Positions 8,198-21,484 of a DNA stretch of 21,694 nucleotides are shown here, piece after piece. Each line of letters opens with the position of its first letter. Position 1 is the stretch's first letter. The stretch is from Gemmatimonadota bacterium (GTDB taxonomy: Bacteria; Gemmatimonadota; Gemmatimonadetes; Gemmatimonadales; Gemmatimonadaceae), in NCBI GenBank assembly GCA_003222065.1, contig QHUV01000051.1, forward strand, positions 1 to 21,694, written 5' to 3'. The notes under the pieces were generated by a model. That model searched no databases and had not been told where the DNA came from. It worked only from the letters and a program-made list of their open reading frames with translations. The translations under genes and the position numbers were made by a program.

Positions 8198-8862
8198 CGG
8201 ACGGTCGCGGGCGGCGCCTAACGCGCTGGCTGGCCGGGGCGGCGCTCGCTCTCGGCGTGCTGGCACCCTTGGCGGGGAGCCCGTACTCGTCCCGGCATGC
8301 CGTGATCGACGTTGCATCGCTGGCGCGGAGTGTCGCCCGCGAGGAGGATCACGTCACGGCGCTCGAGCTGGCGCAGTGGATCAAGGACCGGCGTCCCGGC
8401 CTTCGCGTTCTCGATCTCCGATCGCCAGAGGAATACACGGCCTACCACGTTCCGCGCGCCGAGCATCTGTCGCTCGATTCGCTGGCGACGACGACCTTCC
8501 GTGCCGACGAGACGATCGTGCTCTATTCCGAGGGTGGCCCGCACGCGGCGCAGGCGTGGGTCTTTCTGCGCGCGTTAGGCTATCAGCGGGTGTTTTTCCT
8601 TCGTGGCGGTCTGTACGAGTGGCTCGAGCAGGTGATGAATCCGACGCTGGGCGACACCACGCCGGCGGCGCGAGCGGCCTTCGCTCACGCCGCCGAGCTG
8701 AGTCGGTACTTCGGCGGGGTCCCGCGCAGTGATCTTCGCGCAATGCCCGCGGACGACGCGATTCCACTCCCGCGCGCCGGGTCGAGCGGCGGTTCCGCGG
8801 TTCCGCTCCCGTCGAAGCGCACCGTGTCACGTGTGCTCCAGATCAGACGACGTGGATGTTGA
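8194..8862 (+). CDS. Membrane-anchored rhodanese-like protein lacking the catalytic Cys
   Basis: A 222-residue protein with an N-terminal hydrophobic segment (~11-28, WLAGAALALGVLAPLAG) that acts as a signal or anchor, followed by a single rhodanese domain (~54-148). The domain is recognisable from RVLDLRSPEEYTAYHVPRA, then IVLYSEGGPHAAQAW and FLRGGLYEWLEQV. The active-loop position normally held by Cys is Ser112, so classic persulfide chemistry is not possible there. The only Cys I see is the last residue, Cys222, after a basic RRRG. This suggests either a sulfur-binding scaffold or a carrier using the C-terminal thiol; this is an inference. ATG 8194 overlaps the transporter stop (ATGA). The neighbourhood places it in sulfur uptake. 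Confidence 0.88.
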   Translation: MTDGRGRRLTRWLAGAALALGVLAPLAGSPYSSRHAVIDVASLARSVAREEDHVTALELAQWIKDRRPGLRVLDLRSPEEYTAYHVPRAEHLSLDSLATTTFRADETIVLYSEGGPHAAQAWVFLRALGYQRVFFLRGGLYEWLEQVMNPTLGDTTPAARAAFAHAAELSRYFGGVPRSDLRAMPADDAIPLPRAGSSGGSAVPLPSKRTVSRVLQIRRRGC

Positions 8863-8922
8863 CCGCGGATCCCTCGTCGGCGCTCGGCTCCGCCACGCGC
8901 GATCCGCTCTTTGGCGCGCGCC
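8856..8922 (+). pseudogene. Probable out-of-frame 5' end of the MOCOS-like gene
   Basis: ATG 8856 overlaps the rhodanese stop (ATGTTGA), fitting the coupled starts of this cassette. It opens a frame reading MLTADPSSALGSATRDPLFG then AR. DPSS...AT...AR resembles the NPHS...R.AT...AR segment that precedes the conserved FTANAT block in MOCOS-like enzymes. The rest of the enzyme continues in the +1 frame, ALLLAHLDADD. The switch falls in the GC run GGCGCGCGCCC (8913-8923), a likely single-base insertion or sequencing error. Confidence 0.45.
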
Positions 8923-10062
8923 CTCCTGCTCGCGCATCTCGATGCCGATGATGCCGAATACACGGTTTGCTTCACCGCGAACGCCACCGGCGCCATCAAG
9001 CTCGTCGTTGAGAGTTTCCCATTCTCGCCTAACGGCTCGTACGTCCTCACGGCGGACAATCACAATTCGCTCAACGGCGCGCGGGAGTACGCGCGCCGCG
9101 GCGGCGCTCACGTCGCGTACGTAGCGGTCGACGACGAGCTGCGGCTGGTGGACGCTGCGCCGCGACTCGACGACGTCAGCTCGAAGCGCGGGCCGAAACT
9201 CTTCGCCTTTCCGGCGCAATCGAACTTCTCGGGCGTGCGTCACCCGCTTGACCTCATCGAGGTGGCACAACGACGAGGATTCGACGTTCTCCTCGACGCC
9301 GCGGCGTATCTGCCGAGTAGTCCATTGAGCCTCCGCCGACACCGGCCTGAGTTCGTTGCGCTGTCCTTCTACAAGCTCTTTGGCTATCCGACAGGATTGG
9401 GTGCCCTCGTCGCCAGACGCGACGCTCTCGGTCGACTTCGACGCCCCTGGTTTGCCGGCGGCACCGTGGAGTACGTCTCGGTGCAGAACGACCTGCACTC
9501 GTTCCTTCCGGATGGCGCCGCGTTCGAGGACGGGACGCCGCACTTTCTCGGTGCGGCGGCCCTTCCGGCGGGGTTCAGTCTCCTCGCCGAGGTCGGAATG
9601 GCGCGGCTATCGGCTCACGTCGCACGCCTAACGAATGCGTTGCTCACCGGCCTCGGTGCGCTCGTGCATCGAGACGGCTCTCCGGCGGTGTGTCTCTATG
9701 GCCCGGGCGATAGAGGCGCTCGCGGCGGTGCCGCAGCGTTCAATGTCGTCGCGCCCGACGGACGCGTCGTACCCTACTGGATCGTCGAAGAGCGTGCCCG
9801 CGAGCTCGGTGTCGCCGTGCGTGGTGGGTGTTTTTGCAATCCAGGGGCGGCCGAAGCGGCGTTCGGCTTCGAGCGCGAGGCGGCGGCCCACTGCCTGCGC
9901 ACCGCCGGACGCGACGGCGCCTTTACCGTGCAACGCTTCGCCACCTGTATGAACGATCGCGGCGACGTCGCCGTCGGCGCGGTGCGTGCATCGTTAGGGC
10001 TGGCCAACAACGATGCGGACGTCGATCGATTGATCGCTGTCGTCGAGTCGTTCCTTAATTAA
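8911..10062 (+). CDS. Class V aminotransferase-fold PLP enzyme, molybdenum-cofactor-sulfurase-like
   Basis: A cysteine-desulfurase-fold enzyme that takes sulfur from a thiol substrate through a Cys persulfide. Numbered from TTG 8911 (383 residues), it has YTVCFTANATGAIKLV (~17-32), LTADNHNSLNG (~46-56), FAFPAQSNFSGVRHPL (~98-113), VLLDAAAYLPS, the PLP Lys155 in LSFYKLFGYPTGLGALV, FEDGTPHFLG and GVAVRGGCFCNPGAAEAAF with Cys307/Cys309. These match MOCOS-type rather than IscS/SufS sequences. The usual first ~50 residues, with the YLD...GA block, are missing. TTG 8911 is only the first start allowed by the upstream in-frame stop at 8860. An alternative 5' end in another frame is described at 8856. 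As the last gene of the sulfur cassette, it probably receives or releases its sulfur. It may be inactive if the N-terminus is really lost. Confidence 0.85.
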   Translation: MARALLLAHLDADDAEYTVCFTANATGAIKLVVESFPFSPNGSYVLTADNHNSLNGAREYARRGGAHVAYVAVDDELRLVDAAPRLDDVSSKRGPKLFAFPAQSNFSGVRHPLDLIEVAQRRGFDVLLDAAAYLPSSPLSLRRHRPEFVALSFYKLFGYPTGLGALVARRDALGRLRRPWFAGGTVEYVSVQNDLHSFLPDGAAFEDGTPHFLGAAALPAGFSLLAEVGMARLSAHVARLTNALLTGLGALVHRDGSPAVCLYGPGDRGARGGAAAFNVVAPDGRVVPYWIVEERARELGVAVRGGCFCNPGAAEAAFGFEREAAAHCLRTAGRDGAFTVQRFATCMNDRGDVAVGAVRASLGLANNDADVDRLIAVVESFLN

Positions 10063-10111: not shown

Positions 10112-11425
10112 TCAAGCTCGGACGTCCTGTCGCATCTCAGGCGTGAACTGCAACGCGCGTGCGGGAACGCGAACACCATTCGTCAAAAAACCGCGGGGCC
10201 CGCATTCGATGACGTGCTCGCACCCGGCGCCCCATGCGGCGGTGATCAGGTCCGCCGCGGGGTCGGGATTGCCTAACGGCGAACCCTGGTCGGCGACGCT
10301 CGCGTCGAAGAGGCCCCGCGTCCGGAGGGATACGATCGGCAGGCGCGGCTGATTGAACCGCACGCCGCCGAGCAGGGCCACGAACTGCTCGGCGGCGCTG
10401 GCCGTGTCACCGTCGCCATTAGGCGGACGCATGGCGATCGCCCGTTGCGCGGCGAGGCGGAGCGCCGTCGGCAAATCCGCGGCGCCGGCCACCGCCAGCG
10501 CCGCCAGTTCACCAAGGCCGTCGCCGATCAGCGCTTCAGGACGAATGCCATGCTCCTGCAGTGACTCGGCGATCAACACGCCAGCAAGCACGACGCCGAC
10601 GTGCGCAAGCTCCGGACACCGCTCCAAACGTTGGTCGTGTAGCGCGATGGCATCCATGTCGACGAGCGGCAAGAATGATTGCCGGAACAGGCGACGCGAT
10701 ACTTCCTCCGCCTGATCGAAGTAGTCGGCGAGATACGGCAGGTACGCGCGCAATTCACAGAGCAGGCGTCCGTCGTACGAGTCCACATCCGGAAAAAAGA
10801 ACGCCGTGCGTCCGTCGGGCACGGTGACTTCACCAAGGGCCGGAATCGAGAGCGGCGTCGAAGGCGTCCGCCGGCGCGGAGCTGGGCGCGTACTCTGCGA
10901 GGCGACTCGCTGCCCGAGCGCGCGCACGTCATCCGGAAAGAGGGATTCTGCAGCACCAGGCAATACGAGCGCGCGCTCGATGAACGAGGGCGATTGTACA
11001 CGCTCGCGAAAGCCACCGCGGATCGCGAGCAGGTCAAGCAGCGCGGGAGGAAGCGGGACCGACGCCCCGCTCGTCCTGTCAGCGCACGCCATCACCATGA
11101 ACGCACACGCCGCAGGCTCGCCATCGGCTCGCATGATGCGATAGTAGGCGCGGATCGTGGAGCTATCGGCGAGCTCGTCGAGGGACAGGAGGCACGCGAG
11201 CCGCTCGCGCACTGCCACTGGTGCGAGCGCGCGCAGCCCCTGTTCGATCACCACCCAAGCTACCGAGTCGATCTCGCCCCGAGCATGAGCGCTCGCCCCA
11301 CGCGCTTCGCCGACCAATTTCTCAAAAGCGCCGGTCAGGAGCTTGGTGCCGGTGACATAAAGACGTGGTCCGCAACCACCAACGTCTCCTTCCACGACTT
11401 CGCACGGCGCCGAAAAGTAGTGCAT
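10112..11425 (-). CDS. Hotdog-like domain fused to a degenerate acyltransferase domain
   Basis: A 437-residue protein convergent with the sulfur cassette. Residues ~1-165 look like a hotdog-fold acyl-thioester domain (GTKLLTGAFEKLVGEA, IDSVAWVVIEQ, TIRAYYRIMRADGEPAACAF, VPLPPALLDLL). Residues ~205-425 resemble a polyketide-synthase/FabD-type acyltransferase: TAFFFPDVDSYDG in place of FPGQGSQ, PELAHVGVVLAGVLIAESL, then ALIGDGLGELAALAVAG, and near the end VIECGPRGFLT. The nucleophile motif GHSxGE is GDGLGE (301-306), so Ser and His are both replaced. The domain is also short: the ferredoxin-like subdomain seems absent. It is probably a non-catalytic acyl-ACP binding or regulatory protein. ATG 11425 is the only start after an in-frame stop at 11456. 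No other PKS gene is in view. The hotdog assignment is tentative. Confidence 0.78.
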   Translation of the reverse strand: MHYFSAPCEVVEGDVGGCGPRLYVTGTKLLTGAFEKLVGEARGASAHARGEIDSVAWVVIEQGLRALAPVAVRERLACLLSLDELADSSTIRAYYRIMRADGEPAACAFMVMACADRTSGASVPLPPALLDLLAIRGGFRERVQSPSFIERALVLPGAAESLFPDDVRALGQRVASQSTRPAPRRRTPSTPLSIPALGEVTVPDGRTAFFFPDVDSYDGRLLCELRAYLPYLADYFDQAEEVSRRLFRQSFLPLVDMDAIALHDQRLERCPELAHVGVVLAGVLIAESLQEHGIRPEALIGDGLGELAALAVAGAADLPTALRLAAQRAIAMRPPNGDGDTASAAEQFVALLGGVRFNQPRLPIVSLRTRGLFDASVADQGSPLGNPDPAADLITAAWGAGCEHVIECGPRGFLTNGVRVPARALQFTPEMRQDVRA

Positions 11426-11963: not shown

Positions 11964-12008
11964 GCGTAGAGCGTAGAGCGTTGAGCGCCACGCTCACGCT
12001 CTCAGCGC
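11964..12008. terminator. Tandem 7-bp repeats and hairpin at the end of the cell-wall operon
   Basis: Three tandem heptamers, GCGTAGA, GCGTAGA and GCGTTGA (11964-11984), run into an imperfect stem: GAGCGTTGAGC pairs with GCTCACGCTC (11976-12001, one bulge). The stem can extend outward through AGCG/CGCT. It overlaps the stop codon of the lipoprotein gene and probably ends the five-gene minus-strand operon. No T-run follows on the minus strand. Confidence 0.45.
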
Positions 12009-13081
12009 TCGACCAACAAAACCAAATACCTACCGCTTTCCCAGAACCCTTCCGGGTCAGTGATCCGCAGTCGATTCCCATATGAATTGACGCGTCCGTC
12101 ACGACCCACACCGTCCACGTAGCGCATGTCCTGAGTCGAGAGTACGCGTAGCCGACTGTGTCGGAGCGGGGGTAGGGCGAGCACCGTGTCACGGTACCGA
12201 TCCAGTTCACGAATCTCACCACTCTCCGGCGCTCGGGCATTGCCCTGCTGCTCGACGTCCGCTTCGTCATCAGTGGCCGTCGCGATCGACCCGAAGGCCG
12301 ATCGGATCGTCGCGAGCCGCGCGAGCTCTGCCTCGCGCGCCGGCAAGAGTTGTCGCTCGCGCTGCCATCCGCGCCAATTCTTCTTCGCGACGGTGACCTC
12401 GCGAATGATCCCGGCCGCGAGAAGCTCCTCGCGCGTGCCGACGACATAGTACACGCGTCCCATGCGCGCCGAGAGCCGCGAAAGGCTATCGCGCATGTGG
12501 TCGCGCTCATCGGCGAGAGCACGATTCTCGACCCGCAAGCTGTCGATGCGCTGCTCGAATTCGGCGAATTGGACAGCGCGGTTCTCGGCGAGCGTCCGAA
12601 ACATCGCCAGCGTCTCGGCCGATGACGCGAGCGCGGCACGCGCGCCGCTATCACTCGCGACGGCCGAGCGCCAGAGGCTGTCGCTGGTGCGGAGGCGCGT
12701 CGTCAGGCGATCCAGATTCGCCGCGATGCGCGCTCGCTTGGCCTCGATCAGGGTCCGTTCGCTCGCCGTATCCCCGAGCTCGCCGTTAGGCACGAGCGGC
12801 TGCACTGTGCCGCCGCGCGAACCGCGCGACAGGTCGCGATCGATCTCGTTGACGATCCCTGATAGATCGTTCAGCTGCGCCAACAAGTACTCGTTCTTCT
12901 GCGCGAGCTCGCGATTGACGCGCCGCGCCGTGTCGCCCCGCGCGCGTTCGCTATCCAAAATGACATGCAGGCGCTCGACCGTATCGGGACGAGCGTAATC
13001 ACGAAGCGCCCGACGCCACCCGTGAGCGTCCCCGCACGCCACGAGACCCGGAACGAGCAACAGCCAGACTCGGTTGCGCAT
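12002..13081 (-). CDS. Coiled-coil lipoprotein resembling the Cbp1-like adhesin family
   Basis: A 359-residue lipoprotein: MRNR, hydrophobic VWLLLVPG, lipobox L-V-A-C with Cys16. Residues ~35-80 and ~108-205 are heptad-rich, Arg/Glu/Ala/Leu-rich and predicted as coiled coil (VENRALADERDHMRDSLSRL). The C-terminal domain has VYYVVGTREELLAAGIIREV (~210-229), LRVLSTQDMRY and LRITDPEGFWESGRYLVLLVE (~338-358). These match, from memory, a domain in Bacteroidota lipoproteins annotated as Cbp1-like collagen-binding adhesins. That functional name should not be transferred. I chose ATG 13081 because it puts the lipoprotein signal first; the longer open frame to 13249 overlaps the PBP gene. It is the last gene of the SEDS/PBP operon, 32 bases after the transpeptidase, so a cell-envelope role near the synthase is likely. 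Confidence 0.82.
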   Translation of the reverse strand: MRNRVWLLLVPGLVACGDAHGWRRALRDYARPDTVERLHVILDSERARGDTARRVNRELAQKNEYLLAQLNDLSGIVNEIDRDLSRGSRGGTVQPLVPNGELGDTASERTLIEAKRARIAANLDRLTTRLRTSDSLWRSAVASDSGARAALASSAETLAMFRTLAENRAVQFAEFEQRIDSLRVENRALADERDHMRDSLSRLSARMGRVYYVVGTREELLAAGIIREVTVAKKNWRGWQRERQLLPAREAELARLATIRSAFGSIATATDDEADVEQQGNARAPESGEIRELDRYRDTVLALPPLRHSRLRVLSTQDMRYVDGVGRDGRVNSYGNRLRITDPEGFWESGRYLVLLVER

Positions 13082-13113
13082 GATCGAACTCGGAAAAACA
13101 GCACCGTACCTGT

Positions 13114-14355
13114 TCAACACACCTTGAGCCTCTGCCAATGCTTCCGCAACAAACGCCAGAGGCGCTCGTTCGCGAAATCCGTCGCCAGCGATTCGACATG
13201 CGGTGGATTGCGGCGGAGACGGAAGTAGATCGTTCCGACCACACCACAATCGATCGCGCCGGCACTATCGTCTTCTGCCTTCCCGCTCCCGCCAGCAGTT
13301 CCGCCATTCGCCACCGGTTTGCTCGTGTGTGCGTAGCGGGCACCGATCGCGAAGAGCAGCGTCTTCGCCACGACCGGCGGAACGACGGTATCGGAGAATG
13401 CCAGGATGCGCACAACCGGCGTGCCGTTCACCATGGTGGTATCGGCGCGTCGGAGGTGACGCACGTGCGGTGGCGCATTCAGTGTGCCGCTCTTGCCATA
13501 GAACGTCAGGCTTGGGCTGAGCTGCTGCGCGATCGCGGTTTGCGTTCCCTTTGCCGTCCCGATGGTACCAACGTCGTGAAGCCCGCCGATGAAAGCGGGG
13601 TACCACGAATACTTTGACAACGCCATCGACGGAAACGATGCATGTCCTTGTGTCGGGACGAATGTGAGTCCCACCCGGCGGTCCGTGGTCAGCCGTGCGA
13701 ACGCTTGAGTGAGATCGAGCGTCGTCACGCGGTTCTCGGCGGCGCCGACGGAGAACATGGCGAGTTGCCGCACCGTCGCCGGCCGGCTGCCCCGCATCAT
13801 CGCCAGCCGCGATTGCTCCGGCCAGAGGCCAAGCGGGACGCGGACCGGGTTGAAGCGATCGTCGCGCAGCCGCATCCACACCGACGAGTCCCGACCCTCT
13901 CGCCCCAACTGTGCCGCCAGCTCGAGGCTGGTATTCAGACTGTCGAGAGCGAACAGGCCGGCCGCGAGCACACTCGCGTTCAACGTGTCCGCGCGTATCT
14001 GATGATTGCGGTCGAGCGCGAGATGCGGTCGTTTTCCAACGTGCGTCTCCCCACCGAGACGAAAGCTGACACCGGGCGCGTCATCCATCTGCACGCTGTC
14101 GCGCCGCACCGCCGGCGCGAGCGCCGCGGCGACGAGGGCAGCGGAGAACCTGTTGCTCGAGCAACTGAGATATTGACGCAGCCCGATCCAGCCCAACGGA
14201 CAGGAGGCTCCGGACTCGAACCCTTTGCCTAACGGCAGACCCCATACGTCGTACATCGTCGGCGCGTCGTTGCGCACCTCGAGAGTGGCGAGCTCCGGCC
14301 GCTGCATCAGCGTCGCGGCGGCCAGCAACGGCTTGATCGCCGAGCCGACGTTCAC
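13114..14355 (-). CDS. Class B PBP transpeptidase domain encoded as a separate gene
   Basis: A 413-residue penicillin-binding transpeptidase domain that would cross-link peptidoglycan stem peptides in the periplasm. All three active-site motifs are present: SxxK as Ser5-Ala-Ile-Lys8 (VNVGSAIKPLLAAATLM), SxN as Ser66-Ser-Asn68 (QYLSCSSNRFSAAL) and KTG-type Lys288-Ser-Gly290 (LTFYGKSGTL). The helix AENRVTTLDLTQAFARL (~206-222) is also typical. The remarkable point is the start: GTG 14355 lies only four residues before the SxxK serine, so this chain has no membrane anchor, no pedestal and no first strands of the transpeptidase fold. Those are in the upstream gene, whose stop overlaps this start as GTGA. 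It could therefore only work with that partner, or by frameshifting into one fused protein. The in-frame region above the start is open only back to 14380. Confidence 0.88.
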   Translation of the reverse strand: MNVGSAIKPLLAAATLMQRPELATLEVRNDAPTMYDVWGLPLGKGFESGASCPLGWIGLRQYLSCSSNRFSAALVAAALAPAVRRDSVQMDDAPGVSFRLGGETHVGKRPHLALDRNHQIRADTLNASVLAAGLFALDSLNTSLELAAQLGREGRDSSVWMRLRDDRFNPVRVPLGLWPEQSRLAMMRGSRPATVRQLAMFSVGAAENRVTTLDLTQAFARLTTDRRVGLTFVPTQGHASFPSMALSKYSWYPAFIGGLHDVGTIGTAKGTQTAIAQQLSPSLTFYGKSGTLNAPPHVRHLRRADTTMVNGTPVVRILAFSDTVVPPVVAKTLLFAIGARYAHTSKPVANGGTAGGSGKAEDDSAGAIDCGVVGTIYFRLRRNPPHVESLATDFANERLWRLLRKHWQRLKVC

Positions 14356-15563
14356 CTCTGCAGATCGTCGGTAAGCTGCTCATCAAGGCTCAACGGAATG
14401 TTGCGGCCGCCCTCCAGCTCGACGCTCGCCCCGAATCCAGCCGTGCTGGCTAGTTGCCTAACGAATGGCGACGTGCGCGATACGCTCGGCTGCCAGCGAA
14501 TGCGGCCATTGATCCATTGCGTGCCGCCCAACGTACCGCCGAGTGTCCATTCGAGAATGACCGGTTCGGCACGCGCGCGGCGGGCGGCGCTCAGCACGCG
14601 CGAATGGAACTGGAACATGCCGCCGGTGGCGATGGGCACGGTGCGGCGCGACGGCAGCTGCGCGCCGTCGTAGAGCGTGCGATCGCTCGTGAACAGCGTC
14701 GCCGTGCCCGTTTCACCGAGACGGTCTGGAAAGCGCAACACGAGCTGGGCGAATGGCGAGCCGGGTGCCGTGCATTCCACGTACACTGAATCCTTCACAG
14801 CCCGGAAAGGACAGGGCGGCACGCCAGGTACGCGTCCGCTCGCGCGCACGGACTGCGCGCCCTTGGCCGAGATCCAGCCGAGGCTCCGCGACCATTCGCG
14901 AGTCGTCACGGCGACCAAGCGGGCCGCGTCGAAGGGCGAGGGCACGCGCAGGCCGTACGGTACCGCGCGTTCCGCCAGGACGATGCTGTCGCGCTCACCA
15001 CGCGCGTCATCGATGGCCCGGATCTCCGTCCGGAAGATCGATGGATTCTCCGCCGCCCGCAGATCCATGACTGCCCCGCCCGTTAGGCGGCCGCGGCGCA
15101 CGGCGTCGAGCCGTTCGCGCTGATAGGCGTTGAAACGATCGATCTCGTCGTGCAGGAATCCCCCCGGCTCGAGGCTCGGATAGACCGTCGGATCGGCCGC
15201 CAGGGTATCGAAGGTGACGATCGTAAAGCCGTTAGGCGCCGGCACGAGGGCATCGACCTGGACGGCGCGAATCGCGCGCCGCAATGGCCGGTCCGGCTCG
15301 TCGATCAAGGCGTCGTGCAGCTCGGAGAAAAGCGTGTCGTAGGTAAGGCCGCGGCGGGCTGTACTCGACAGCGTATAGCGCGGCAGCGCCGCCCCGAGGG
15401 CGACGAAGCCGATCACCGTCAGCAGCAGGAAAATGAGTCCCACGTGCGCGGCTGACGGCAGGCGCGCCTCGCGAGCGCCGGGTTTGGTCTCTGGCTCGGC
15501 GAGCGTGACGGGCGGCGCATACGACTCCCCTTGCGTGGGGAACTGCGTTTTGGGTGTCGTCAT
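14352..15563 (-). CDS. N-terminal membrane anchor and pedestal half of the split class B PBP
   Basis: A 403-residue bitopic membrane protein: cytoplasmic Pro-rich tail (1-38), one transmembrane helix (~41-60, VGLIFLLLTVIGFVALGAAL) and an extracytoplasmic region of about 340 residues. I see no catalytic motif. Near the end GGRNIPLSLDEQLTDDLQR resembles the 'LTLD..LQ' segment that begins the transpeptidase fold in class B PBPs. The next gene starts, by GTGA overlap, almost at the SxxK motif. The likeliest reading is the anchor/pedestal half of one bPBP. ATG 15563 overlaps the SEDS gene stop as ATGA. Alternatively it is a stand-alone regulator of the transpeptidase. Three CCTAACG-type heptamers lie within it. 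Confidence 0.78.
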   Translation of the reverse strand: MTTPKTQFPTQGESYAPPVTLAEPETKPGAREARLPSAAHVGLIFLLLTVIGFVALGAALPRYTLSSTARRGLTYDTLFSELHDALIDEPDRPLRRAIRAVQVDALVPAPNGFTIVTFDTLAADPTVYPSLEPGGFLHDEIDRFNAYQRERLDAVRRGRLTGGAVMDLRAAENPSIFRTEIRAIDDARGERDSIVLAERAVPYGLRVPSPFDAARLVAVTTREWSRSLGWISAKGAQSVRASGRVPGVPPCPFRAVKDSVYVECTAPGSPFAQLVLRFPDRLGETGTATLFTSDRTLYDGAQLPSRRTVPIATGGMFQFHSRVLSAARRARAEPVILEWTLGGTLGGTQWINGRIRWQPSVSRTSPFVRQLASTAGFGASVELEGGRNIPLSLDEQLTDDLQR

Positions 15564-16348
15564 GTGTTGCTCACTCTGGTGCTTTCGGCACGCCAGAGAG
15601 CGACCACCATCGCCGACAACATCGCTCCGACGAACGACACGTCACTCCACGCATTGAGCCCGAGAAATGGCATGTTCTGACCGGTGAGCGGCACGATGCC
15701 AAGGTTCGATGCCGCGACATAGGCCGCGGGGATGGTCAACATCAATGCGCCACCCACGACGACGGCCAACGGGCTGTCATCAGCGACGCCGCGGTCGACG
15801 CCGCTCCGCTCGCCGCGCGCGACGCGCCACGCATACAGCGCGACGACGAGGGCAACCCACACATAAAGCAGGAGCACGGCGATGCCGCCTAACAAGCCAT
15901 GCTCCGACAGGACGTACACCGAAAAGGTGTTCTCGGCATAGGAGATGGGCACGGGTACGCCACGGCCGATTACTGTCGGACCAGCTAGACCCTCGCCGAG
16001 GAGGCCCGACGCCGCATATGCCCGGCCTCCCCACGCCTGTTCCATCGATCGCAGAATCTCATCGCGCTCGGGCGAGGGCGCGGCGCTCACGAGCACACGC
16101 TCGAGCAGCTCCGGATGCGACGCTGACAGGCCCCGTACGACGGCGCGTATCACCGGATCGGAGGTCAGCGTCCAGTGTCGCAGTGGGCCGCCCAAATCGG
16201 CGAAGGCCGCGGATCGGGCCGCCGGCGACTCGGCGTGTTGTAGCGTTCCGAGGTGCGGCCGAAGCACGGGCTCGGCGAGAGCACCGATGAGGACGATGAT
16301 CCCGGCAAAGGTCGCCGCGATACCACGCGGCAACGACGCGAGCCCCAT
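15560..16348 (-). CDS. Half-length SEDS (FtsW/RodA/SpoVE-like) polytopic protein
   Basis: A 262-residue protein matching the C-terminal four helices of a SEDS peptidoglycan polymerase. A first helix at ~9-26 is followed by an extracytoplasmic loop of ~110 residues, the position of the functionally critical loop in RodA/FtsW. Then come GLLGEGLAGPTVIG (~115-128), NTFSVYVLSEHGLLGGIAVL (~140-159, compare DFIFAVIGEELGLLG), a helix at ~192-215, SNLGIVPLTGQNMPFLG (~214-230, compare GLLPVTGVPLPFIS) and a last helix at ~237-251. Typical SEDS proteins have ten helices and about 370-420 residues. The missing first part may reside in the upstream 753-residue protein. I chose ATG 16348, 14 bases after that gene's stop. 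The longer frame to 16600 overlaps it with an Arg-rich, unconvincing N-terminus. It overlaps the PBP-half gene by four bases. Confidence 0.8.
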   Translation of the reverse strand: MGLASLPRGIAATFAGIIVLIGALAEPVLRPHLGTLQHAESPAARSAAFADLGGPLRHWTLTSDPVIRAVVRGLSASHPELLERVLVSAAPSPERDEILRSMEQAWGGRAYAASGLLGEGLAGPTVIGRGVPVPISYAENTFSVYVLSEHGLLGGIAVLLLYVWVALVVALYAWRVARGERSGVDRGVADDSPLAVVVGGALMLTIPAAYVAASNLGIVPLTGQNMPFLGLNAWSDVSFVGAMLSAMVVALWRAESTRVSNT

Positions 16349-16362
16349 GGCGAGGAGGAGCG

Positions 16363-18624
16363 TTACAGAACGACGACGTTGAGCGCGCCGAGCAGGGCCA
16401 ACGTGAGAAGCGGCGCGCCGAGCCGAAGCCTCGGGCCGGCATCGGCGGTGCGGCGCATTGCACGCTCGACGCGCCAGACGAGCAGTGCGACGATGTACAG
16501 CACGAGAAGCGTCGCCGTCGCGAACACCGCGAGCTGGCGCGCGATCACGCTGAGGGGTACGCCACACGCCGCGATAATGATCGCGGCACGCCGGGCCCAA
16601 TCGTTGTCGCCGGGCTCGGAACGCAGTACCTCAGTTGGAGTGGCCGATGGCTCACGCCCGCGGCGCTGCGGCCGTAGATACTCGACGCCGATCCAGGCCA
16701 GCATCGCGACGAAGATCACCAGCAATGCGCCGCCGACCGCCAACGGCCGCAACGTGCCGAGCACGCCGATGCCGATGAGCATGAACAGCAGACCAAGTGA
16801 GGATGTGCGGCGATCGGGCAGCCGGGCCGCGGCGACCGCTCCAGTGTATCCGGTCACGGGCTCCGGCTGGAGGCCGGCGACAAGCCGCGCTACCCGGTCC
16901 TCGATCTTCAGCACGAGCCTAACGACGCGCGGCGCCCAGGTGCTCCACTGCAGCAAGAGTACCGCGCCGAGGATCGTCGCGATCCACGCGCCGACGGCGG
17001 AGTCGGCGCCACGCTCGTAATACGGTGTCGCGTACGTAATGCGGTAGCCGAGCACGAGACGGACGCCAAGGAACACGAGCGCCAAGTTCGCCAGCGTCCA
17101 CGCTGCCGCTGTCGACGGGCGCGCGCTCAGCGCCGCCGCACTGATTTTGGGATCGGATCCCAGCAACAGGAACGCGCCGGTGATCAGCAGCGCCAAGCCA
17201 GCGAACGTCAGATTGAGATTGATAATCTCGCCCGTTGCCACCTTGTGAATTCGCAACAAATAGCCGGCGGTCCGGCGCGGTTCGGCGGAGCGCGCCCATA
17301 CGGTCATCACTGAATCGACGGGCGCCGTATACACGCTGTCTGACGCGATGACCTGGGCCGCGCGGTCATTCAACATCCGTACGCGGCCGAGGAACGCATA
17401 ACGAGTCGTGTCGAGGCCGAACGCGCCTAGATAGAAGTGCGGCACGGACGGTGGCAGGCGTGACGTCGATATCAACGTGCAGCGTCGCTGCGTGCCGCAA
17501 ACCTCGTCCGACGGCAGCCAACCGAGCCGCGGGTCGGGACCGCGAACGAACCGGACGGCAATCCCCGGATCGCGATTCGGCCCGCGCGCGTGGTTCGCCA
17601 GCACGAACGACCACCGCTTACCGTGCGAGACGACGCGCACGGTATCGGCCATCGTTAGGAGAGGCCGCTCACTCGTCCGGCGCTCCGCCTTGGTTACGAC
17701 CCATTCTCCATCGCGCGACGCAAGTCGAAAGAGCAGCGGCGGCACGAGCCCCCAGCGCTCCAGCGGCTTGAGCCTCGCCTGCGGCTCGTAGATGAGCGTC
17801 AGTACGAGATCCCGTGCGGCGCTCGTATCGGGGACGTGCGTCCAGGACAATTCGCGCAGGGGCAACCCTTCACTCAACCGTCGCGTTAGGCGTCGGCCGA
17901 GCACATCGAACATCGGCGACGAATCGGGAAGCACGAGGGGAGCACGTTCGCCATTCCACTCGAGAAAACGACCATCGCCCGACTCGATCAGTCGAAAATG
18001 ATGTGTCGGTCCGGCGGCACGTGCCGCGATGGCATTCACGTCGGGGGAGGACAGACTCAGCTCGTCGCCCCAGAGTTGCACCCACGCCGGATCGAAGCGC
18101 ACGACACGCTCCCAGAGTCGCCGCGAGGAGGATCGGCTCCAGTCGCGCTTCTGCTGCAGCGACTCCACTCCTTCCATGCTGTCGACAATGAACCCGCGAC
18201 GCGTTGGATCTCGGCGAAGCGTTACGGCCCACCGTTGAGCAACGTCCGATGAGGGCTCGAGCCGAACGTCGAGGGAGTCGGGCGTGCTCCCTTCGGCGCT
18301 GAGATCCCCGGCTCCGATGCGGAAGACGCCGGAGCGCGGCAGCGATAGATGCACGCCGACGACGTCGAAGCGCTCGCTCCTCTGCCGCTGAATCTCGACG
18401 TAGTAGCTGTTGACGGCGAAGACCCATACTGCCGCAAACAGGGCGAGGAAGTACGCGGGGCGACCGGTGCCTCCGTCTCGTACACCCAACCCCGGCAATA
18501 CCGCCGCCGCGCCAAGCAAGGCGACCCAGATCGCGAACCAAGGTTCATCGACGTCGACGAACGAAGCGACGACGAACAGCGCGATCGCAGCGAGCGCCAC
18601 GATCCGTAGGCGTCGACCCAGCAT
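16363..18624 (-). CDS. Large polytopic membrane protein with a ~390-residue extracytoplasmic domain
   Basis: A 753-residue protein, first gene of the SEDS/PBP operon. Three hydrophobic helices (~7-23, 29-47, 57-73) lead into a long soluble region (~75-465). About eight more helices follow (~469-489, 509-526, 542-562, 608-626, 629-647, 678-694, 699-717, 734-752). I do not recognise the soluble region. It has one Cys pair (EVCGTQRRCT, ~375-383) that could form a disulfide if extracytoplasmic. The chain ends in a helix, and 14 bases later the half-length SEDS gene begins with another helix. This would fit an N-terminal SEDS half expanded by a large insertion, but I could not match the SEDS signatures of helices 1-6, so that remains inference. 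ATG 18624 has no strong SD. Confidence 0.72.
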   Translation of the reverse strand: MLGRRLRIVALAAIALFVVASFVDVDEPWFAIWVALLGAAAVLPGLGVRDGGTGRPAYFLALFAAVWVFAVNSYYVEIQRQRSERFDVVGVHLSLPRSGVFRIGAGDLSAEGSTPDSLDVRLEPSSDVAQRWAVTLRRDPTRRGFIVDSMEGVESLQQKRDWSRSSSRRLWERVVRFDPAWVQLWGDELSLSSPDVNAIAARAAGPTHHFRLIESGDGRFLEWNGERAPLVLPDSSPMFDVLGRRLTRRLSEGLPLRELSWTHVPDTSAARDLVLTLIYEPQARLKPLERWGLVPPLLFRLASRDGEWVVTKAERRTSERPLLTMADTVRVVSHGKRWSFVLANHARGPNRDPGIAVRFVRGPDPRLGWLPSDEVCGTQRRCTLISTSRLPPSVPHFYLGAFGLDTTRYAFLGRVRMLNDRAAQVIASDSVYTAPVDSVMTVWARSAEPRRTAGYLLRIHKVATGEIINLNLTFAGLALLITGAFLLLGSDPKISAAALSARPSTAAAWTLANLALVFLGVRLVLGYRITYATPYYERGADSAVGAWIATILGAVLLLQWSTWAPRVVRLVLKIEDRVARLVAGLQPEPVTGYTGAVAAARLPDRRTSSLGLLFMLIGIGVLGTLRPLAVGGALLVIFVAMLAWIGVEYLRPQRRGREPSATPTEVLRSEPGDNDWARRAAIIIAACGVPLSVIARQLAVFATATLLVLYIVALLVWRVERAMRRTADAGPRLRLGAPLLTLALLGALNVVVL

Positions 18625-20702: not shown

Positions 20703-21484
20703 ATCGCTGGAGCGCGCCGGCGCCGATGACGCCGAGTGCCGAAGTGGACCTTCGCGTCGGCGGGCGATATCGAATCGTTATGCGCGGGCCCGACGGCACG
20801 GATCGCGTTGTCAGGGGCGTCTACCGCACGATCGAGCGGCCCGCGAAGCTTGCGTACACGTGGAAATGGGAAGAGAGCCCGATGGCCGATTCACTCGTTA
20901 CTGTCGAATTTCACGACAGAGGCAAGAGCACCGAGGTCGTGCTACGGCATGAAGGGCTGATCGACGCCGAGAGCCGTGCCCGACACGAGCACGGGTGGAG
21001 AGGCTGCCTGGAGAACCTCGTCTCCATCAACAAAGAGCACCAGACGACATCGAAGGTCGTCGAGGCATTTCCGCCGGACCAGTCCGAGTTCAAGCCACAT
21101 CCGCGATCCAACAGCGCGCGGCAGCTGGTCTGGACCTTCGCGGTCGAGGAGCGCCTGCTTACGGCCGCGGTCAAGAATCAGCTCAGTCTCGGCGGCGGAT
21201 TTCCGAAGGGCCCGGACACGTGGCACGAGGTCGTGAGCGCGTTCAAGCAGACCCACGCCGACGCGGTGGCGACGCTCGAGGCGGCGCGCGACGAGGACCT
21301 TGCCGGCACGGTGAAGTTCTTTACCGGCCCGAAGACGATGGGAGACATCCCGAAGGCGGAGTTCTTGTGGTTCATGCTGTGCGATCAGATCCACCATCGC
21401 GGGCAGTTGAGTGTTTACTTACGCATGGCAGGGGGGAAGGTGCCGTCGATTTATGGTCCGTCGGCGGACGAGCCGTGGAACTGA
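20588..21484 (+). CDS. AHSA1/SRPBCC domain fused to a DinB-like domain
   Basis: A 298-residue two-domain cytoplasmic protein. Residues ~13-147 are an AHSA1-type START-fold ligand-binding domain: LEIRRTIPASRERVFDAWTQ, ELNRWSAP, VDLRVGGRYRIVM, RGVYRTIERPAKLAYTW and HEHGWRGCLENL. Residues ~150-298 are DinB-like, a four-helix bundle with VVEAFPPDQSEFKPHPRS, EFLWFMLCDQIHHRGQLSVY and LRMAGGKVPSIYGPSADEPW. The His pair 269-270 is at the usual metal-ligand helix, but the first ligand region reads QLVWTFAVEERLL without a His, so metal binding may be altered. ATG 20588 has an excellent SD, GGAGAGGAG. The two domains are normally separate genes. Its ligand is unknown. Expression is probably under the overlapping ArsR-type gene. 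Confidence 0.92.
   Translation: MATTTKKADTIDTTLEIRRTIPASRERVFDAWTQAKELNRWSAPAPMTPSAEVDLRVGGRYRIVMRGPDGTDRVVRGVYRTIERPAKLAYTWKWEESPMADSLVTVEFHDRGKSTEVVLRHEGLIDAESRARHEHGWRGCLENLVSINKEHQTTSKVVEAFPPDQSEFKPHPRSNSARQLVWTFAVEERLLTAAVKNQLSLGGGFPKGPDTWHEVVSAFKQTHADAVATLEAARDEDLAGTVKFFTGPKTMGDIPKAEFLWFMLCDQIHHRGQLSVYLRMAGGKVPSIYGPSADEPWN

What the first reader, a model, noticed from the sequence alone, without database searches (positions are those of the whole stretch)
12002..18624. Divergent SEDS/class B PBP operon with split genes, a giant membrane partner and a lipoprotein
In order: a 753-residue membrane protein, a 262-residue SEDS C-half, a PBP anchor half, a PBP transpeptidase half and a coiled-coil lipoprotein. 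SEDS-bPBP pairs are established peptidoglycan synthases, but I know of no described version spread over four coupled genes with a ~390-residue extracytoplasmic domain. It may be a specialised synthase for shape, sporulation-like or envelope repair functions.
Basis: partly seen in the sequence, partly recalled or inferred. Interest (0 to 1): 0.75.

Follow-up and report, generated by a model that had tools for sequence, protein, structure and literature searches.

The report
Giant cell-wall synthase pair, artefactually split
These genes encode an unusually large and divergent version of a known two-enzyme machine that builds the bacterial cell wall; the odd "four-gene" split is most likely an assembly error, but the machine itself looks real, and relatives in a cultured bacterium carry both enzymes as one protein.

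Summary
The genes are real; the reported split most likely is not. The 753-residue protein and the "SEDS half" are pieces of one ~1091-residue protein, and the two PBP "halves" are pieces of one ~867-residue PBP. The window lacks 211 and 169 bp that same-genus G001 has; similar losses hit two unrelated genes of the contig. I read this as assembly error, unverified by reads.

The parts
16363..18624 (-). N-terminal 753 residues of the giant SEDS protein (residues 1-753 of the 1091-residue relative P0002)
   Evidence: 752 of 753 residues identical to P0002
17227..18390 (-). Extracytoplasmic domain, about residues 79-466, between the third and fourth hydrophobic segments
   Evidence: hydropathy; mostly strands in the model; coordinates; its fold was not identified and its side of the membrane is inferred
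15560..16366 (-). C-terminal 268 residues of the giant SEDS protein (P0002 residues 824-1091)
   Evidence: PF01098 19.8 bits, E 4e-4, below cut-off; 266 of 268 residues identical to P0002; coordinates
16366..16367 (.). Junction where 211 bp present in G001 are missing (70 codons plus 1 base; P0002 residues 754-823)
15932..15934 (-). Glu968 codon, at the position of the catalytic Asp of SEDS polymerases
   Evidence: alignment; coordinates
15668..15691 (-). PLTGQNMP motif, aligned with the canonical motif near the last helix
14356..15563 (-). N-terminal piece of the class B PBP: one N-terminal hydrophobic segment and the part before the transpeptidase domain
   Evidence: starts within the 4-bp overlap with the SEDS stop
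14355..14356 (.). Junction where 169 bp present in G001 are missing (56 codons plus 1 base)
13114..14355 (-). Transpeptidase piece of the class B PBP: SAIK 14343-14332, SSN 14160-14152, KSGT 13494-13483
12002..13081 (-). Coiled-coil lipoprotein, 359 aa, lipobox LVAC with Cys16
   Evidence: beside the SEDS-PBP genes in 3 of 18 related loci

Best explanation
In the living organism this is a two-enzyme peptidoglycan synthase plus an accessory lipoprotein. A ~1091-residue SEDS protein (three N-terminal helices, a ~390-residue extracytoplasmic domain, then an enlarged SEDS membrane core) polymerises lipid II, most likely with Glu968 doing the work of the canonical Asp. An ~867-residue class B PBP cross-links the new strands through its SxxK/SxN/KTG site. 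The two are made from overlapping genes (one polypeptide in some relatives) and act as a complex. It is an accessory third SEDS-bPBP system beside canonical ones. The large ectodomain and, at least in one lineage, a double-GTPase-like pair probably regulate it. The split into four ORFs is an error in this assembly. Shown by computation: homology, fold, motifs, linkage, fusion, the missing bases. Inferred: enzymatic activity, regulation, complex formation, topology, and assembly error rather than mutation.
Confidence: 0.72

Rival explanations
1. The gaps are real: this strain carries recent frame-breaking deletions and the operon is decaying. (Concerns the split only; compatible with the functional reading of the relatives.)
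For: The assembly reads so, without N. The giant SEDS is accessory and patchy (12 of 200 genomes of the phylum with a match, own included), so loss would be tolerable.
Against: Two internal gaps of 211 and 169 bp in neighbouring genes, a 186-bp loss at 21029 that merges an AHSA1-like and a DinB-like frame, and a net 188-bp shortfall near 8868-8923, where the window's class-V aminotransferase begins at profile position 60 and that of G001 at 2, all within one 21.7-kb contig of a 736-contig draft. The 188-bp place aligns poorly, so its exact limits are unsure; the 186-bp loss is a multiple of three. All other coding indels of 3 bp or more in the operon keep the frame. A near-identical protein (3 differences in 1021) is intact.
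Confidence: 0.12
2. The giant SEDS protein is a catalytically dead scaffold or sensor; only the PBP acts, cross-linking strands made by other polymerases.
For: Asp replaced by Glu in 36 of 40 rows; low sequence similarity to canonical SEDS; large ectodomain.
Against: The Glu is invariant in 31 of 31 rows of A1, and in the fused family the place holds D in 13 and E in 2 of the 15 rows with the motif, so an acid is kept. Asp811 and Gly813, which I match by eye to the canonical 'PDLG' loop, are also invariant.
Confidence: 0.2
3. The SEDS-fold protein handles another lipid-linked glycan (polymerase or ligase, as WaaL), not lipid II.
Confidence: 0.08

Closest known systems
RodA-PBP2 (E. coli 8tj3; also 6pl5/6pl6, T. 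thermophilus by recall)
   Same: SEDS fold over 317 of 341 residues; adjacent or fused class B PBP; acidic residue at the catalytic position
   Different: ~1091 residues against the ~370 of RodA, ~390-residue ectodomain, additional hydrophobic segments, Glu for Asp in 36 of 40 rows, below the Pfam cut-off
FtsW-FtsI (P. aeruginosa 8bh1; 8p1u)
   Different: Not in the division cluster; own genome has a separate SEDS gene beside MurG and MurC
Natural SEDS-PBP fusion ORFs (mentioned in PMC10449877, passage seen)
   Same: Polymerase and transpeptidase in one polypeptide in 5 of 18 related loci
   Different: Here 1446-1781 residues in 15 of 16 listed hits, with the large N-terminal domain and, in three genomes, linked P-loop genes; I did not compare them with the fusions of that paper's ref. 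18, which I have not seen
Double-GTPase (DO-GTPase/GAP1) systems (PMC7159879, passages seen)
   Same: Two related P-loop genes beside a large protein without recognised domain in G017, G018 and G029; the best matches PF19993 with E 1.6e-5, 25.1 bits, below the 27-bit cut-off
   Different: Linked to a cell-wall synthase; one search counted no 'FtsW' and no 'penicillin-binding' in that paper. Other members match PF19993 only at E 6e-4 to 0.02 or not at all

Membership tests
SEDS family (FtsW/RodA/SpoVE) | SEDS membrane fold | tested here: met
SEDS family (FtsW/RodA/SpoVE) | Profile match over curated cut-off (PF01098, TIGR02614) | tested here: not met
   19.8 of 26.4 bits and 20.7 of 337.5 bits for the window piece; G001 locus 21.7 bits; a limit of the profiles, not a functional feature
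SEDS family (FtsW/RodA/SpoVE) | Catalytic Asp in the fourth extracytoplasmic loop | tested here: inconclusive
   Glu in 36 and Asp in 4 of 40 giant-family rows, Asp in 23 of 23 canonical rows (rows may repeat a gene); D262A kills RodA (PMC10449877 section 10)
SEDS family (FtsW/RodA/SpoVE) | Lipid II polymerisation | not testable with these tools
   needs biochemistry
Class B penicillin-binding protein | SxxK, SxN, KTG motifs in order | tested here: met
   S463, K466, S524, N526, K747, G749, T750 invariant in 32 of 32 rows of A2; SAIK, SSN, KSGT in the window
Class B penicillin-binding protein | One N-terminal helix and transpeptidase fold | tested here: met
   N-terminal hydrophobic segment 32-50 of P0042, the other one (777-798) lying in strands of the model; 46 of 50 listed Foldseek rows named PBPs
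Class B penicillin-binding protein | Penicillin binding | not testable with these tools
   needs bocillin labelling
   single ORFs in G001; 36 of 40 and 61 of 67 listed homologues full-length

The most novel reading that the evidence does not exclude
A GTPase-controlled, giant, third-type peptidoglycan synthase of Gemmatimonadota: a SEDS polymerase that works with Glu instead of Asp and senses the envelope through a ~390-residue ectodomain, coupled or fused to its transpeptidase and switched by a cytoplasmic double-GTPase pair with a coiled-coil lipoprotein. Basis for the GTPase link: P-loop genes directly upstream of the fused gene in G017, G018 and G029; a separate locus in G000, G001 and G002, followed in G001 and G002 by a lipoprotein homologous to the window's; in 60 genomes (own included) the larger P-loop protein is found in 6 and the giant SEDS in 8, both in 5.
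Probability: 0.25. Interest if true: 0.75.

Novelty: new variant of a known kind. Interest (0 to 1): 0.52.

Why it matters
The catalytic Asp is treated as central to SEDS polymerases; a natural family with Glu there, next to sister proteins with Asp, tests how strict that chemistry is. The fused single-chain version in a cultured bacterium (Gemmatirosa kalamazoonensis) fixes polymerase and transpeptidase at 1:1 and could be purified. A possible GTPase switch on a wall synthase would be a new mode of control. It also shows how draft assemblies can create false "split gene" novelty.

Tried and rejected
Rejected: a genuine four-gene arrangement. Rejected: replacement of canonical systems; the own genome holds RodA, PBP2, an FtsI/SpoVD-type PBP and a contig-cut second SEDS gene. 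I briefly suspected that the new PBP replaces PBP2, because mreC-mreD-rodA of G001 follow each other without a PBP2 gene, but PBP2 lies elsewhere (G001 C11, G000 C281).

Led nowhere: Foldseek alone on the SEDS model (best rows are nuclear-pore chains with TM about 0.09); sequence search of A1 in the PDB (one chance hit); first genome-contig scan with P0002 (no relatives; the second, with A1, gave 10 loci). Parts of the ectodomain and PBP looked FHA-like to the eye, but Pfam listed no FHA domain for the proteins scanned. In the answers of my paper searches I saw no listed title that describes this family; I saw only the listed rows, and only open-licence PMC papers are held, so this is no proof that it is unpublished. 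One search found nothing because I asked for four of six terms.

Dropped rows: loci L024, L029, L031, L033 as duplicates of L016, L080, L079, L081; G139 (L085), only an 80-residue match without a PBP match; 7 of 30 canonical SEDS loci in which my pattern did not find the motif; G030 was left out of the alignment for the same reason and read by eye (AEN, so Glu). P0124 lacks the ECL4 pattern, and the SxN pattern was found in 12 of 16 fused hits, SxxK in 15, KTGT in 16. Gene names not from a call: those given as 'by eye'.

Full report
WHAT IS IN THE SEQUENCE. The window is contig C286 of a 3.73-Mb draft genome of 736 contigs, 81.66% complete. On the minus strand lie, in order, ORFs of 753 aa (18624-16363), a SEDS C-terminal piece ending at 15560, 403 aa (15563-14352), 413 aa (14355-13114), and a lipoprotein of 359 aa (13081-12002). 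Of the first four, Pfam places only the second, weakly (PF01098, 19.8 bits, cut-off 26.4).

THE SPLIT IS MOST LIKELY NOT REAL. Of 40 listed homologues of the 753-aa protein, 36 are 1071-1183 aa and four are 498-790 aa; the nearest, P0002, has 1091 aa and differs from the window's two pieces at 3 of 1021 residues, but has residues 754-823 in addition. Of 67 listed PBP homologues 61 are 771-926 aa; that search could not have listed pieces as short as the window's. In same-genus G001 the SEDS gene is one ORF of 1090 aa and the PBP one ORF of 867 aa. Aligned to G001, the window lacks 211 bp at 16366 and 169 bp at 14356, both breaking the frame, while every other indel of 3 bp or more inside the coding sequence is a multiple of three. 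The same contig lacks 186 bp at 21029, merging an AHSA1-like and a DinB-like frame that in G001 are not one ORF (DinB alone is 203 aa), and is net 188 bp shorter near 8868-8923, where its class-V aminotransferase begins at profile position 60 and that of G001 at 2 (the second place aligns poorly). Similar-sized losses in unrelated genes of one contig point to the assembly. Without reads a real mutation is not excluded.

THE CATALYTIC POSITION. In an alignment of 40 family rows with 23 canonical SEDS proteins of relatives, the column of the catalytic Asp holds D in 23 of 23 canonical rows, and E in 36 and D in 4 of the 40 (some rows may be the same gene from two sources). The four with D are fused proteins (G017, G018, G029, G188), whose 'LTDN' bridges the canonical 'SDF' and the window's 'AEN'; fused G164 has E. 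In the wider fused family 13 of 15 rows with the motif have D and 2 have E. G030, read by eye, has E. In E. coli RodA, D262A abolishes activity while E258A and H260A do not (PMC10449877, section 10 read); that section does not mention D262E. In the model this loop has pLDDT below 50, so the geometry is open.

THE PBP. The motif residues are invariant in the 32-row alignment and present in the window. The profile finds FtsI/PBP2 chains in the PDB (E 1.4e-5). The model (pLDDT 72.9) finds PBPs (best 7onn PBP3, E 1.4e-10; 46 of 50 rows named PBPs, the other 4 one penicillin-bound protein), though with TM of only 0.26-0.33 by query length.

CO-CONSERVATION AND FUSION. In 18 distinct related loci the PBP lies directly beside or fused to the SEDS protein: 17 in my HMM search, and G029, cut by the contig end, in a whole-genome search (E 1.7e-14). 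Five are fused: L019, L020, L021, L081, L082. Some loci are cut by contig ends. A database search with the fused protein of G018 gave 16 hits, 15 of 1446-1781 aa. P0109, identical to G018's protein and on a contig of the same length, is named Gemmatirosa kalamazoonensis; P0115, matching G188's contig, is from Roseisolibacter sp. H3M3-2. G018's contig is 5.3 Mb, so its fusion is hardly an assembly product. The lipoprotein was found beside the pair in 3 of 18 loci.

DISTRIBUTION. 8 of 60 relatives and 12 of 200 genomes drawn from the phylum have a match, own genome included in both; one of the 12, G139, only by 80 residues and without a PBP match. Of 10 loci of the named collection, 9 are titled as Gemmatimonadota, Gemmatimonadetes, Gemmatimonadaceae or Longimicrobiales and one, L028, a 7.2-kb contig, as Myxococcota, perhaps misbinned. 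Canonical SEDS are in 41 of 41 genomes tested, own included. The own genome has RodA (363 bits, cut-off 336.7), PBP2 (532 bits, cut-off 455), an FtsI/SpoVD-type PBP below cut-offs, and a contig-cut SEDS gene beside MurG and MurC. So this is an accessory third system.

A POSSIBLE GTPASE LINK. In G017, G018 and G029 the fused gene follows a P-loop protein of 286-341 aa, a protein of 818-871 aa and a second P-loop protein of 480-549 aa; the two P-loop groups are related to each other (hhalign probability 97.7), and the best single match to Double-GTPase 2 is E 1.6e-5, just below cut-off. G030 has another P-loop pair downstream of its unfused genes. In the window's genus the larger P-loop protein is at another locus (G000 C190, G001 C67, G002 C132). 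In G000 the smaller one lies beside it; in G001 and G002 a lipoprotein homologous to the window's follows (blastp E 3e-12 and 2e-9, partly coiled coil). Among 60 genomes the larger protein occurs in 6 and the giant SEDS in 8, both in 5; the hypergeometric value 6e-5 ignores relatedness and the physical linkage in three of the five. G002, 79% complete, has the P-loop protein but no giant SEDS; G030, G035 and G056 have the giant SEDS but no such protein. The large middle protein was found only in G017, G018 and G029. The link is suggestive, not shown.

LITERATURE. Natural SEDS-PBP fusion ORFs are mentioned in PMC10449877 (passages and section 10 seen). Active-site mutants of FtsW come from PMC8765783 (passages). 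PMC7159879 describes double-GTPase systems (passages). In PMC11271474, on gemmatimonadotal cell division, a word search found no FtsW, RodA or FtsI. My searches listed no title that describes this family.

VERDICT. The four-gene split should be withdrawn. What remains is a strongly diverged variant of the SEDS-bPBP synthase: co-conserved, with an unusual ectodomain and active-site substitution, and present in cultured relatives.

Noticed in passing
window 21029: 186 bp present in same-genus G001 are missing; an AHSA1-like and a DinB-like reading frame are merged into one 455-aa ORF, probably the same kind of assembly error.
   Followed up: yes
window 8740-8926: Net 188 bp shorter than G001; the class-V aminotransferase ORF (383 aa) begins at profile position 60, that of G001 (463 aa) at 2. 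The stretch aligns poorly.
   Followed up: partly
L097:9104-11508 (G001), L098:1-2014 (G000), L099 (G002): A double-GTPase-like locus in the window's genus; in G001 and G002 a lipoprotein homologous to the window's follows it.
   Followed up: partly
L020:2325-7443, L021:11664-16524, L019:5550-10475: P-loop protein, 818-871-aa protein and second P-loop protein directly upstream of the fused SEDS-PBP gene; the middle protein looks GAP1-like to the eye only, Pfam lists nothing for two of the three at E 0.1 and the third at E 1.
   Followed up: partly
L100 (G001): mreC-mreD-rodA follow each other without a PBP2 gene in between; PBP2 lies on another contig.
   Followed up: partly
L028: A 7.2-kb contig labelled Myxococcota carries the SEDS-PBP pair; transfer or misbinning.
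   Followed up: no
window 10112-11425: A 437-aa protein with a weak acyltransferase match (PF00698, 33.7 bits); a 461-aa counterpart in G001 scores 30.4 bits, below cut-off.
   Followed up: partly
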